Of a stretch of 21,297 nt of DNA, positions 10,389 through 13,981 are shown in pieces. The notes under the pieces are model-generated. The model was not told the origin of the DNA, did not search any database, and was given only the letters and a program-made list of their open reading frames with translations. The stretch's first letter is position 1. Every line of letters starts with the position of its first letter. The stretch covers positions 1 through 21,297 of IMG/VR virus record IMGVR_UViG_3300033273_000082. One strand, written 5' to 3'. The DNA is from a virus. A program made the translations under genes and the position numbers.

Positions 10389-11581
10389 CAACCCCAATCT
10401 TTCGCAACGGTAAAGTTTGCCCTTGAAAACTCAAGTCTATCGACAAGTTTCATGGCGGTGCCATCTTTGATGGCGACAAATCCCTCAGGAGATGTCACAC
10501 GGTATCCATTCTCATCCTCAAGAAAGGTGCCCACACCCTCAATCTTCTTCAATCGTTCGATGATCTGCTGTTTAGCAGTCATAAGATTTTTGAATCCTGA
10601 GAGCGAAGCATAAATGGTATTCTTATTAGTATTTAGGTATTTTATAGCGTCCGCTTTCTTCTTCTCCCAGTCCTTCTTCGACTTCTCTGTCTTCTTCTTT
10701 GTGATCTCTTTGTCATATCGCGTTGCAAGGAACGCAACGAACCCTGTAGCCATCGCTTGAGCGTTTGTAGGAATGACACCACGGCGGATAACATCGTTGA
10801 AATAAATCTTAAAGACTGCCGCGTAGTCAAACGTCTTGGTACCACCACCGATAGCATCGAGGAAGTTCTTACCCTGTCCCAGGTTACGTTCTGCAACGCG
10901 GATACTGTTGTTGAGTTTAGTCAACTCAGTCTTGCTGAGGTTTGCCTTGCCACCAATGTTCTCAAACGTGGCAGAGAAGACAGCAACCTCAGTAACACCC
11001 TGCAGACCAGACACATCCACACCAAAACCAGCGTTCATCTCAGGAAGAGAAGCACCCCTGTAGTGGGTGTGGAACACGATGCCGAGGTTAGCAGCGCCGA
11101 CCTTGCGACCCAGTTCAGTGTCTGCCTCTACACAGTATGTGATGGTGTTAGGACGGAACTTATAGCACTTCTTACCACCCATGACGACCTTAGGAGGAGT
11201 AGAAGTGAAGAGGAGATCACCCTGCAGCACACCCTTAATGGGAAGTTTCTTGAGGGAACGATAGCACTGCTTCAGTTTGTCCTTGATGGGGTGATCGCCA
11301 TAGTAATAGTCGATCTGTTCTTCAGAGAAACATGCTTTGGATTCTGTCTTAGCGAAGACAGACTTGGTACCCACGAAAAACAACCCTGTCTGAGGATCTG
11401 TGCCGCAAAAGATTGCAGGGGCACCGTCCCACTTAACAGTGACCTTGGTGTTAGTACCACCGTGACCTGTGGTCAGCATGTCACGCAACGACTTGAGGAA
11501 AGACAGAGCGTTCTGTGCCCCCTTGTATCCGTTGTTGAAGATGTCGTCTTCGAGGTGTTCTAGGTGTGTGTTCTTTGCCAT
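10388..11581 (-). CDS. Ligase-like covalent nucleotidyltransferase family protein (397 aa)
   Basis: The protein carries motifs of the DNA/RNA ligase and capping-enzyme superfamily. Motif I is KWDGAPA (KxDG, with candidate nucleophile Lys50). A motif III-like GVLQGDLLF lies at 117-125. A motif IV-like PEGFVAI (EGxV) is at 365-371, and a motif V-like AMKLVDR is at 376-382. Members of the superfamily form a lysine-AMP or lysine-GMP intermediate and join or cap nucleic acid ends; the substrate here cannot be told. About 240 residues separate motifs III and IV, including a Lys-rich helix (~291-312), more than in minimal ligases. It may correspond to a family held in databases as a domain of unknown function. 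ATG at 11581 overlaps the 475-aa gene's stop (TAATG), and its own stop overlaps the HxGH enzyme's start. Confidence 0.82.
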   Translation of the reverse strand: MAKNTHLEHLEDDIFNNGYKGAQNALSFLKSLRDMLTTGHGGTNTKVTVKWDGAPAIFCGTDPQTGLFFVGTKSVFAKTESKACFSEEQIDYYYGDHPIKDKLKQCYRSLKKLPIKGVLQGDLLFTSTPPKVVMGGKKCYKFRPNTITYCVEADTELGRKVGAANLGIVFHTHYRGASLPEMNAGFGVDVSGLQGVTEVAVFSATFENIGGKANLSKTELTKLNNSIRVAERNLGQGKNFLDAIGGGTKTFDYAAVFKIYFNDVIRRGVIPTNAQAMATGFVAFLATRYDKEITKKKTEKSKKDWEKKKADAIKYLNTNKNTIYASLSGFKNLMTAKQQIIERLKKIEGVGTFLEDENGYRVTSPEGFVAIKDGTAMKLVDRLEFSRANFTVAKDWG

Positions 11582-13008
11582 TAGGGTTGCATTCCAATCA
11601 TGTCTTGAAAACCATTGAACGAGTTCTTAGAACGTAGTTCGACGGTCTGGTTGGGGTCAATGCTGTGGTAAGTCATCACATTACATGATGGGATACCGCT
11701 GGTTGCATTGATATCCATCTTTACATAGATAACTTTCTTAAGGACATACTCACGAAACATCTTGTTGAAGTTGAGTAGTCCGTCACTGTTTGCTTGGATG
11801 ATGATCTGCTCACACACATAGGCAAGGTTCTGAAGGGTGTAGTCTGTCTGTCCTGCGTATGTACTCAGTCTACTACGGCTGGCACAATATGTGGAGATGA
11901 GTGTGCGGAGTTGTGACTGGACCACCCCTGTCCCAAATGCCTGGGTCAAAGTGGTTCTGACTGTACCCTGTGCCCTAAACGCCAGTCCAGAGATCTGTCC
12001 AGGATCGGAGACGGATGACATGTACCGACGACCGAACGAGGGATCATCCTTTGCCAACTTCATCGCTGCACCGATCATTGCTTTGTATCCTGTAGGTGCA
12101 AATGCCAGGGTTTTATACAGGTTATACGCTGCTTTCTCAGGTCTTGCTGTAAGTGTGATCTCATACTTACCCCTGGTGCCATACGCCTCAATGACATCCA
12201 TGAAGGGTCCAGGTTTGATGGTGTTAGTAGCAGCAGATCTCTGTGCTTTAACACTAAATCCAACCTGACCATGGGGATCTTCAATAAGATAGAAGTCCAC
12301 CAGTGGTTCGTTACCTCTGGCAGGAAGAATGATCTTGGGATTATTGTAGAGATATGGTTCTCTCTTGGATATATCATCATGTAAGAAGCACATCGGTGCC
12401 AAGACCTCACCGAAGTTCACAACCATATCATCATGCTTGGGGATGTAAGGTTTCGCTGTCTGATATACCTCACGCACCTCACTAGCGGGACAGTTACCCT
12501 CAAAGTATTCTGCTAAGCACTTCAGGTATGCCTTAAGTGGAAGAGAGAAATCAGATCTTAGATCAATAGAAGTCTTCACCTGATCAATAAACTGCCTCTT
12601 GGTGTACTGCTTCGTATCACTTGCGAGGTTTGCAAAGTCTTGTGGTTTGAAACTAACCGAAGCAATCTGTGATCTGTTTCGTGTGCCTCTACCAATACTA
12701 ATGATTCGTCTATGTTCCTCCAGATCTGGGTGGTGCTCTATGACTGCTCTGAGGATTGCAGTCTCACCCCTCTCCTGAGTAAACCCCAGATATTGCCCCA
12801 CGTTAGGGGCAATCTTAAATATCATTTGACCCGTATCAACAGAGATGTTGATCGGTTCATTAGCAAATGGCAACTGCGAAGCAGGCTCAAGCATCCTCAT
12901 GATGTAGTCGTAGCAAGTCACGACATCATCTGTGTTGGGAGAGTCATTTGCATCACCAAGAGTCTGGATTTCATCCGAATCTCTTGGCACAAAAAGATAC
13001 TGTGCCAT
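11581..13008 (-). CDS. Hypothetical protein, possible PD-(D/E)XK-like core (475 aa)
   Basis: No confident family. One region looks like a restriction-endonuclease-like core: a helix with FGEVLAP (Glu201), then VDFYLIEDPHG (Asp238), then GFSVKAQ (SxK, Lys254) and a conserved-looking TNTIKPG. This E...D...SxK order fits a PD-(D/E)XK variant, but the call is by eye only. The rest has Arg/Lys patches (GRGTRNRSQ at ~107-115) and a C-terminal domain with mixed helices and strands. The ATG at 13008 directly follows a terminator T-run and has no Shine-Dalgarno except GAGGG in the hairpin. A late-promoter-like octamer lies 23 nt upstream of the ATG. It is the first gene of a coupled block with the ligase-like and HxGH enzymes. 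A virion-protein role is an alternative. Confidence 0.72.
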   Translation of the reverse strand: MAQYLFVPRDSDEIQTLGDANDSPNTDDVVTCYDYIMRMLEPASQLPFANEPINISVDTGQMIFKIAPNVGQYLGFTQERGETAILRAVIEHHPDLEEHRRIISIGRGTRNRSQIASVSFKPQDFANLASDTKQYTKRQFIDQVKTSIDLRSDFSLPLKAYLKCLAEYFEGNCPASEVREVYQTAKPYIPKHDDMVVNFGEVLAPMCFLHDDISKREPYLYNNPKIILPARGNEPLVDFYLIEDPHGQVGFSVKAQRSAATNTIKPGPFMDVIEAYGTRGKYEITLTARPEKAAYNLYKTLAFAPTGYKAMIGAAMKLAKDDPSFGRRYMSSVSDPGQISGLAFRAQGTVRTTLTQAFGTGVVQSQLRTLISTYCASRSRLSTYAGQTDYTLQNLAYVCEQIIIQANSDGLLNFNKMFREYVLKKVIYVKMDINATSGIPSCNVMTYHSIDPNQTVELRSKNSFNGFQDMIGMQP

Positions 13009-13009
13009 G

Positions 13010-13032
13010 AAAAAAGAGGGTGCTACCCTCTT
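13010..13032 (-). terminator. Rho-independent terminator directly before the 475-aa gene
   Basis: On the minus strand AAGAGGGT and ACCCTCTT form a perfect 8-bp stem with a 3-nt loop, followed by a TTTTTT run that ends one base before the ATG at 13008. It lies just after the stop of the 93-aa protein gene and would end transcripts coming from the replication operon. Confidence 0.85.
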
Positions 13033-13039
13033 ATTTATT
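13032..13039 (-). promoter_or_regulatory. T4-type late promoter-like AATAAATA overlapping a terminator
   Basis: AATAAATA on the minus strand differs from the T4 late octamer only at its first base. It abuts and slightly overlaps the 5' arm of the terminator at 13010-13032. It also covers part of the TAA stop of the 93-aa gene, so part of the match comes from the stop codon. A start 6-8 nt downstream would fall inside the hairpin. Confidence 0.55.
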
Positions 13040-13319
13040 ATTCAGTTGGCGGTTGCGATGGCACAACGGGGTCCCGAGACCTATTCTTAATCACAATAAA
13101 GGCATCCTTATTATACTTACGAGTGCCTTTGAGTGGTGCCCACTTAGTGCCAGCACCATCAATACCATAGACTGATGTACCGCCAATCTCTACGGCAACA
13201 TCATCATAACAATCCCATCCAAGTTCTGCAATAGTGTCTTTGACTTTATCATGTATTGACTTCATCACAGCAGCAGATTTACGCTTTGCAGTCAACTCAG
13301 TCAGATATTCTTGTGTCAT
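13038..13319 (-). CDS. Hypothetical protein (93 aa)
   Basis: No family is recognised. Residues 1-35 form a charged amphipathic helix (LTAKRKSAAVMKSIHDKVKD). A beta-rich part follows (DDVAVEIGGTSVYGIDGAG, DAFIVIKNRS), then a Pro-rich tail (VVPSQPPTE). The ATG at 13319 overlaps the mazG stop as TGATG, so it is translated with MazG. It is the last gene before the terminator that closes the replication operon. Confidence 0.78.
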   Translation of the reverse strand: MTQEYLTELTAKRKSAAVMKSIHDKVKDTIAELGWDCYDDVAVEIGGTSVYGIDGAGTKWAPLKGTRKYNKDAFIVIKNRSRDPVVPSQPPTE

Positions 13320-13981
13320 CAGATGTCTCCTTGCTTACGGTGTTCAGAGTGCTCAACAGTGAACTCACCAGTCGGATAGCGAGCAGCAAGTTTGAGGGTA
13401 TTCAGGTAGATAACCTCATCCAGACGAACGTCGAGAGCGATACATGCCTGAGCAACGTACCACATGATATCACCCAGTTCTTTCTTCAGGTGTTCCTGGT
13501 TTGCATCGTCCCATGGTTTGCCTTGGAACTTGATCTTCTTGACAATCTCCATGAACTCACCAGATTCCGCAACAAGACCACTTGCAGCCGTATCAAGTCG
13601 GGCAACATTACAACCAGCAGCGACCAACTCCGCCAGGCGTTCCTTGTAATCTGCTGTAGTTTGCGAAGCAAGCGAAGTGGTTTGGTCAACGAACGCGATG
13701 TACTTGTCGAGGTCCATCTCGATCTTCTCCGTTGATGCATCCCCCTTTTTACTACGAGCGGCAGCAGTACGCTCTTTGATCTTTTGTTTCGTCTGAAACG
13801 CATTGACCTTGGGATCATTAGCAACATCCTCAGCAGATTTCCAAGTATTTTCAGCAATGTTCTCAGCAGTATCTTGCAGATCTTCCACCCGATCTTTTGC
13901 TTTGGAGTTCATTTCCTCTGCTGCCTTGGCGGCACCAGAAGCCGAGTCCATTCCGTCTTCGTTAATAAAGTTGTTGCTCAT
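13319..13981 (-). CDS. mazG: MazG-like nucleotide pyrophosphohydrolase with N-terminal extension
   Basis: MazG-type enzymes hydrolyse NTPs or dNTPs to the monophosphate and pyrophosphate; cyanophage versions are thought to adjust host nucleotide pools. The ExxE...ExxD metal site is visible as Glu139 and Glu142 (VAESGEF) and Glu168 and Asp171 (KKELGDIMW). The conserved C-terminus follows (LDEVIYLNTLKLAARYPTGEF). The MazG core starts near residue 89 (MDLDKYIAFVD). The first ~88 residues are an Ala/Lys/Glu-rich helical extension not needed for the fold. An internal ATG at 13717 has GGAGAAG about 9 nt upstream, so a shorter ~132-aa MazG could also be made. The long start at 13981 overlaps the gp41 stop (ATGA). 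Confidence 0.93.
   Translation of the reverse strand: MSNNFINEDGMDSASGAAKAAEEMNSKAKDRVEDLQDTAENIAENTWKSAEDVANDPKVNAFQTKQKIKERTAAARSKKGDASTEKIEMDLDKYIAFVDQTTSLASQTTADYKERLAELVAAGCNVARLDTAASGLVAESGEFMEIVKKIKFQGKPWDDANQEHLKKELGDIMWYVAQACIALDVRLDEVIYLNTLKLAARYPTGEFTVEHSEHRKQGDI

What the first reader, a model, noticed from the sequence alone, without database searches (positions are those of the whole stretch)
13010..13039. Late-promoter octamer overlapping a terminator, placed so that late transcripts would lose the hairpin
AATAAATA directly precedes a perfect 8-bp terminator whose T-run ends one base before the ATG. Transcripts from the upstream replication operon would end here. A late transcript starting 6-8 nt after the octamer would begin inside the hairpin and so could not form it. 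T4 gene e and similar genes use late starts inside a hairpin to switch translation on; this would be a transcription version of the same trick.
Basis: partly seen in the sequence, partly recalled or inferred. Interest (0 to 1): 0.6.

Follow-up and report, generated by a model that had tools for sequence, protein, structure and literature searches.

The report
Late promoter built into a terminator
At the end of its DNA-replication genes this ocean cyanobacterial virus carries a stop signal for RNA synthesis into which the start signal for the next, late gene is built, so that late RNA should begin inside the stop signal and escape it; near-identical cassettes recur before head, baseplate and other genes in many related viruses.

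Summary
On the minus strand AATAAATA (13039-13032) shares its last A with a perfect 8-bp hairpin (13032-13014); six T end one base before the ATG of the 475-aa gene. No composite of this kind arose in 2000 Markov copies of the window. It is not a one-off. In ten Kyanoviridae genomes [AC]TAAATA is strongly enriched 20-25 nt before genes, and every genome examined has one within 1 kb after mazG. In relatives the octamer and its 20-26 nt spacing persist with or without the hairpin; where the hairpin exists its stem begins at the octamer's last A, and its arms covary. Near-identical cassettes precede major-head/PA14, gp25 and other genes, often after psbA, psbD, purM, pstS or mazG. Scrambled octamers never show the full cassette (0 of 190, against 44 of 246). 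Most likely: an intrinsic terminator for incoming early/middle transcription, with a late promoter whose predicted start (13026) lies in the 5' arm, so late RNA cannot form the hairpin. That is a transcriptional variant of the T4 gene e/soc/49/I-TevI trick; the hairpin does not hide a Shine-Dalgarno next to the AUG. Start site and termination are inferred from sequence, not measured.

The parts
13032..13039 (-). Late-promoter-like octamer AATAAATA
   Evidence: [AC]TAAATA enrichment and spacing in ten Kyanoviridae genomes; conserved at orthologous junctions
13014..13032 (-). 8-bp hairpin AAGAGGGT-AGC-ACCCTCTT; its first base is the last A of the octamer
   Evidence: covariation in relatives
13010..13015 (-). 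Run of six T, the terminator's U-tract; predicted 3' ends of incoming transcripts lie here
13024..13026 (-). Predicted late start: 13026 (G, sixth base after the octamer) most likely, up to 13024
   Evidence: inferred; the sixth base after the octamer is depleted of C (3%) in 308 genomic sites; folds of RNAs starting at 13026 or 13024 lack the hairpin
13038..13319 (-). 93-aa gene (phrog_475), last gene of the replication cluster; its stop codon overlaps the octamer
13319..13981 (-). mazG (phrog_22758)
11581..13008 (-). 475-aa gene controlled by the cassette; unknown function, no PHROG, Pfam, NCBIfam or PDB relative

Best explanation
A start-in-terminator cassette at the boundary between an early/middle operon (gp43-uvsX-gp41-mazG-93aa) and the next gene. 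RNA polymerase arriving from upstream makes the whole hairpin and U-tract and stops at 13015-13010. Late in infection the phage's gp55-type late polymerase binds AATAAATA and starts at about 13026, in the last bases of the 5' arm; this RNA has only the 3' arm and U-run, forms no hairpin, is not terminated, and gives an 18-nt unstructured leader before the AUG. Shown: the sequence layout, its conservation, register and covariation, and its recurrence at early/middle-to-late boundaries. Inferred: termination, the start site, and the timing.
For: Octamer: TAAATA lies 15-35 nt before a gene start at 18.7% of its sites (236/1259), against 2.1-5.3% for non-overlapping permutations of the same letters; A or C precedes it; spacing peaks at 20-25 nt (here 23). 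NATAAATA is the published cyanophage late motif (PMC2984593). All 12 Kyanoviridae sequences examined have [AC]TAAATA within 1 kb after mazG, 4 of them with the hairpin. At the orthologous junction the octamer-to-ATG distance is 23-26 nt with and 20-24 nt without the hairpin, and the stem starts at the octamer's last A in every hairpin case. Stem: 7 of 7 pairs kept, 3 with changes on both sides. Cassette with start codon: 44 of 246 sites, against 0 of 190 for two scrambled octamers. Downstream genes include major head (phrog_773), gp25 (phrog_261), phrog_1462 and phrog_3060; upstream genes include mazG, purM, psbA, psbD and pstS.
Against: The bases just after the octamer are G-rich, whereas T4 late promoters (PMC2988020) and most Kyanoviridae octamer sites are AT-rich there, which may weaken opening. 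The predicted late leader has no Shine-Dalgarno. Outside this junction the cassette is rare in the ten sequenced genomes. Cassettes also follow late tail-fibre genes (S-B05, L367), where an early/late switch is not the point. No RNA data.
Confidence: 0.63

Rival explanations
1. The hairpin acts mainly on translation, as in T4 e, soc, 49 and I-TevI: early read-through RNA carries a stem ending 5-6 nt before the AUG that keeps ribosomes off, and late RNA lacks it. Termination is minor.
For: Same geometry of late promoter and hairpin; the stem lies in the ribosome footprint and its 5' arm is SD-like (AGAGGG, GGAGGG). T4 gene 49 has the same octamer-stem-ATG layout, and T4 late genes are so regulated (PMC2988022).
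Against: The 3' arm is pyrimidine-rich and no SD lies between stem and AUG, so no RBS is hidden beside the AUG; late RNA gains no SD by losing the hairpin. A run of T follows the stem at every site of this junction, as a terminator needs and a translational hairpin does not.
Confidence: 0.2
2. An ordinary terminator for the replication operon; the octamer is an A/T-rich accident from the overlapping stop codon, with no promoter.
For: The octamer overlaps the TAA stop; a second AATAAATA in the window lies uselessly 3 nt before uvsX.
Against: The octamer is kept at orthologous junctions without hairpin and where it does not overlap the stop (TAATCTAAATAG), at modal promoter spacing; scrambled octamers lack the cassette.
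Confidence: 0.06
3. The palindrome is a DNA operator next to the late promoter, bound by a dimeric repressor, as I-TevI binds over its own late promoter.
For: Near-perfect palindrome at the start site; I-TevI precedent (PMC2988022).
Against: Loop length varies from 3 to 8 nt and the arms change in compensated fashion, and a T-run follows on one side only: signs of an RNA hairpin, not of a fixed-spacing protein site.
Confidence: 0.04
4. The hairpin carries a distant Shine-Dalgarno closer to the AUG, as the hairpin of T4 gene 25 does.
For: SD-like purines lie about 17 nt before the AUG.
Against: Those purines are inside the stem, so folding hides them; nothing SD-like precedes the stem.
Confidence: 0.02

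Closest known systems
T4 late genes with a promoter inside a hairpin (e, soc, 49) and I-TevI, I-TevII, I-TevIII, segB, mobE
   Same: A late promoter is placed so that late RNA lacks the 5' arm of a hairpin which RNA from upstream promoters carries; T4 gene 49 shows the same octamer-stem-ATG layout.
   Different: There the hairpin hides the ribosome-binding site (PMC2988022); here the 3' arm is pyrimidine-rich, a U-run follows, and no SD is hidden beside the AUG, so the block should be transcriptional.
T4-type late promoter (TATAAATA; NATAAATA in cyanophages)
   Same: Octamer, sense strand, 23 nt before the gene.
   Different: G-rich rather than AT-rich bases after the octamer; overlaps a terminator.
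Tandem terminator-then-promoter junctions of cyanophages
   Same: Both elements at an operon boundary; 32 of 119 ordinary intergenic terminators have TAAATA 4-39 nt downstream, and the window has one at 7180-7151.
   Different: Here the order is reversed and merged: octamer first, start site inside the hairpin, T-run against the ATG.

Membership tests
T4-type (gp55-dependent) late promoter | Octamer TATAAATA or close variant | tested here: met
   AATAAATA; A at -13 is a known T4 variant (PMC2988020); family consensus [AC]TAAATA
T4-type (gp55-dependent) late promoter | Usual spacing to the gene | tested here: met
   23 nt; genomic mode 20-25 nt
T4-type (gp55-dependent) late promoter | AT-rich segment just after the octamer (usual, not absolute) | tested here: not met
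   AGAGGG follows; PMC2988020
T4-type (gp55-dependent) late promoter | Phage encodes gp55; a mapped late 5' end | not testable with these tools
   the window is a 21-kb fragment; no RNA data
Intrinsic terminator | Stable G+C-containing stem followed directly by a T-run | tested here: met
   8 bp, 4 G-C, six T, z -4.1
Intrinsic terminator | Conserved as a stem | tested here: met
   100% of cells paired, 3 pairs with two-sided changes
Intrinsic terminator | RNA 3' ends in the T-run | not testable with these tools
   no RNA data
T4 hairpin-regulated late genes (e, soc, 49, I-TevI) | Late start removes the hairpin's 5' arm | tested here: met
   predicted +1 at 13026-13024; folds from there lack the hairpin; start site inferred
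[quoted passage not shown]
   3' arm ACCCTCTT and TTTTC precede the AUG; no SD there
T4 hairpin-regulated late genes (e, soc, 49, I-TevI) | Gene lies downstream of early/middle genes on the same strand | tested here: met
   gp43-uvsX-gp41-mazG-93aa upstream, all on the minus strand

The most novel reading that the evidence does not exclude
Kyanoviridae use a general class of merged terminator-promoters as one-way transcription insulators: late type, with the start in the 5' arm (this finding); a sigma70 type with TATAAT abutting the same hairpin; and a type with the -35 box TTGACA inside the hairpin and the T-run in the spacer. Near-identical cassettes before unrelated genes suggest that they are swapped as modules at early/middle-to-late boundaries.
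Probability: 0.45. Interest if true: 0.7.

Novelty: new variant of a known kind. Interest (0 to 1): 0.57.

Why it matters
It would be a very compact switch: one ~35-bp element that stops early/middle transcription, starts late transcription and sits against the start codon. It explains how tightly packed T4-like cyanophages, which lack the MotA/AsiA middle system, could keep head and baseplate genes silent behind photosynthesis, purine and replication genes. It is readily testable, since cultured phages (S-SM1, Syn30, P-RSM4, S-CAM9, P-SSM7) carry it. It also offers a ready-made insulated promoter design.

Tried and rejected
An SD-carrying hairpin of the T4 gene 25 type: rejected, the SD-like bases are inside the stem. 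Chance: rejected. A known Rfam element: none at the site, only sub-threshold chance matches. Unbiased genome-wide enrichment of octamer-abutting terminators outside this junction in the sequenced genomes: only a few cases, not convincing alone; the support comes from the orthologous junction, the pattern-versus-scramble test and named phages. Function of the 475-aa protein: no family or PDB match; an AlphaFold model (pLDDT 81) matches only uncharacterised phage proteins such as S-PM2 GC:841. Homology of three other cassette-borne proteins to the 475-aa family: none seen. Papers: no held paper found describes such a cassette. The Syn9 transcriptome (Doron et al. 2016, known from memory and as a citation) did not turn up in the library searches, so a prior report cannot be excluded. 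The original gene 49 paper (Barth et al. 1988) is not held.

Full report
What is there. The window is a 21.3-kb IMG/VR fragment of a T4-like cyanophage (Kyanoviridae). The relevant genes are on the minus strand: gp43, uvsX, a 2OG-Fe oxygenase, gp41, mazG, a 93-aa gene (phrog_475), then the 475-aa gene. The junction reads GAATAATAAATAAGAGGGTAGCACCCTCTTTTTTCATGG. AATAAATA occupies 13039-13032, the stem 13032-13025 and 13021-13014, the T-run 13015-13010, and the ATG starts at 13008. The hairpin folds at -10.4 kcal/mol with z -4.1, and RNAs beginning at 13026 or 13024 do not form it. No such composite appeared in 2000 Markov copies of the strand.

Is the octamer a late promoter? In ten Kyanoviridae genomes TAAATA lies 15-35 nt before a called start at 236 of 1259 sites (18.7%). 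Non-overlapping permutations of the same letters give 2.1-5.3%, and ATAAAT, which overlaps the motif, 10.9%. The base before it is mostly A or C, the spacing peaks at 20-25 nt, and the sixth base after the octamer is almost never C (3%), as expected for a purine-preferring +1. The motif is strongly biased to the coding strand (Syn9 37:1, S-WAM1 41:5, S-SZBM1 30:3) and agrees with the NATAAATA published for S-PM2 and Syn9 (PMC2984593). The window's octamer is 23 nt from its ATG. Every one of 12 Kyanoviridae sequences has [AC]TAAATA on the sense strand within 1 kb after mazG; the window, G001, P-RSM6 and S-CAM9 have the hairpin as well.

Is the hairpin part of it? Forty-eight IMG/VR loci encode relatives of the 475-aa protein. 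Their junctions fall into two groups. In one, the octamer is followed 20-24 nt later by the start codon without a hairpin (S-SZBM1, S-WAM1, L009, L014, L020 and others). In the other, a hairpin plus T-run fills the 23-26 nt between octamer and start codon. In every hairpin case the stem begins at the octamer's last A and ends 5-7 nt before the start codon. Arms differ between lineages (AAGAGGG, AGGAGGG, AGAGGGG) with full compensation: 7 of 7 pairs are always formed and 3 change on both sides. Loop length varies from 3 to 8 nt. These are marks of an RNA hairpin fitted into a pre-existing promoter-to-gene spacer. A few of the junctions (P-RSM6, S-CAM9, L366, L411) were included by position or cassette; I did not test whether their downstream proteins belong to the 475-aa family.

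How far does it spread? Scanning IMG/VR for TAAATA plus three stem arms gave 246 unique sites; 44 carry the complete cassette (complementary arm, T-run, start codon of a long ORF 3-13 nt later). Two scrambled hexamers with the same arm gave 0 of 190. Downstream genes include major head protein phrog_773, baseplate gp25 phrog_261, phrog_1462, phrog_19894, phrog_3060 and phrog_2496. Upstream genes include mazG in three loci, purM in two, psbA in two, and tail fibres or structural proteins in two or three. Using the element itself as a BLAST query found it in cultured cyanophages: P-RSM4 (psbA, small ORF, cassette, gp220 head), S-SM1 (psbD, ORF, cassette, PA14 protein), Syn30 (psbD, cassette, head), ACG-2014b (purM, cassette, PA14 protein), S-SSM4 (after pstS), P-SSM7, S-H35 and S-B05. 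Nucleic-acid metabolism genes are middle and capsid genes late in cyanomyoviruses (PMC7238727), so most, not all, cassettes sit where an early/middle unit meets a late gene. At the Syn9 head gene gp220 there is an octamer (TCTAAATA) and an SD-like sequence but no hairpin.

Mechanism. Incoming polymerase transcribes both arms and the U-tract and should terminate. Late polymerase starting six bases after the octamer begins at the last base pairs of the 5' arm, so its RNA cannot fold the hairpin and is not terminated. The layout, conservation and register are shown; termination, start site and timing are inferred. Two observations weigh against an efficient simple promoter: the G-rich segment after the octamer, where T4 and most cyanophage late promoters are AT-rich, and the lack of a Shine-Dalgarno in the late leader. 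The main rival is a translational role of the same hairpin on read-through RNA; both effects may coexist.

Compared with known systems. T4 e, soc, 49 and the I-Tev endonucleases use a late promoter placed so that late RNA lacks a hairpin that hides the RBS (PMC2988022). T4 gene 49 has the same octamer-stem-ATG layout. The present cassette works like these but fails one defining feature: no RBS beside the AUG is hidden. Its pyrimidine 3' arm and T-run make it a terminator. I therefore call it a new transcriptional variant of a known kind. Ordinary cyanophage junctions often have the terminator first and the octamer after it (32 of 119 terminators), as the window itself shows at 7180-7151.

Wider lead. 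The scrambled control ATAATA instead hit sigma70 promoters (TTGACA-17-TATAAT) abutting the same GAGGGG hairpin; TATAAT also abuts terminators in P-SSM4 and, after psbD, in Syn9 and (as TATACT) S-PM2. Separately, 14 of 172 Kyanoviridae terminators contain TTGAC in the hairpin (mean 1.3 for permutations), 11 of them with a -10-like box at 15-19 nt. Merged terminator-promoters may thus be a general design in this family. Whether this has been reported before cannot be excluded, because the key Syn9 transcriptome paper was not found in the library searched.

Noticed in passing
L724:1293-1492, L029:3588-3783, L374:2745-2937, L376:8394-8585, L243:5121-4933, L206:5216-5411: Rfam manA RNA (RF01745, filed as cis-regulatory) ends within about 25 nt before the cassette's octamer. 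It also often has a TTGACA/TATAAT-like promoter just upstream (P-HM1, P-SSM4, P-RSM6, P-SSM2, L374). In these loci it looks like a separately transcribed RNA closed by the cassette's terminator, and it would be absent from the late mRNA.
   Followed up: partly
terminators in ten Kyanoviridae genomes, e.g. P-HM1 112702, P-TIM40 169029, P-RSM6 178201 (reverse-strand offset): The -35 box TTGAC(A) lies inside the terminator hairpin, the T-run is in the spacer and a -10-like box follows: 14 of 172 terminators against a mean of 1.3 for permuted 5-mers.
   Followed up: partly
S-PM2 115176-115200 (L477) and T4 46884-46855 (L474): Two Holliday-junction resolvases of different families, S-PM2 RusA-like and T4 gp49, both have an octamer directly followed by a hairpin and the ATG: possible convergent late control.
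   Followed up: partly
L605, L619, L621, L625, L640, L693, L707, L709: Consensus sigma70 promoters (TTGACA-17-TATAAT) directly abut a GAGGGG terminator hairpin, so the start would lie in its 5' arm.
   Followed up: partly
window 7180-7151 (minus): Ordinary order: hairpin GGGGGGGACAATCCCCC, then TATAAATA 28 nt before the 194-aa head protein gene.
   Followed up: yes
window 13006-12986 (minus): A second hairpin, GGCACAGTATCTTTTTGTGCC, lies in the first codons of the 475-aa gene and would remain in late RNA; it is not kept in the relative L008.
   Followed up: partly
window 11581-13008 (minus): 475-aa protein family of unknown function (invariant KPQDF-like motif, C-terminal G-x-QP). AlphaFold pLDDT 81; it matches only uncharacterised phage proteins such as S-PM2 GC:841.
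   Followed up: partly
window 16928-16921 (minus): A second AATAAATA overlaps the gp43 stop and ends 3 nt before uvsX; probably chance.
   Followed up: yes
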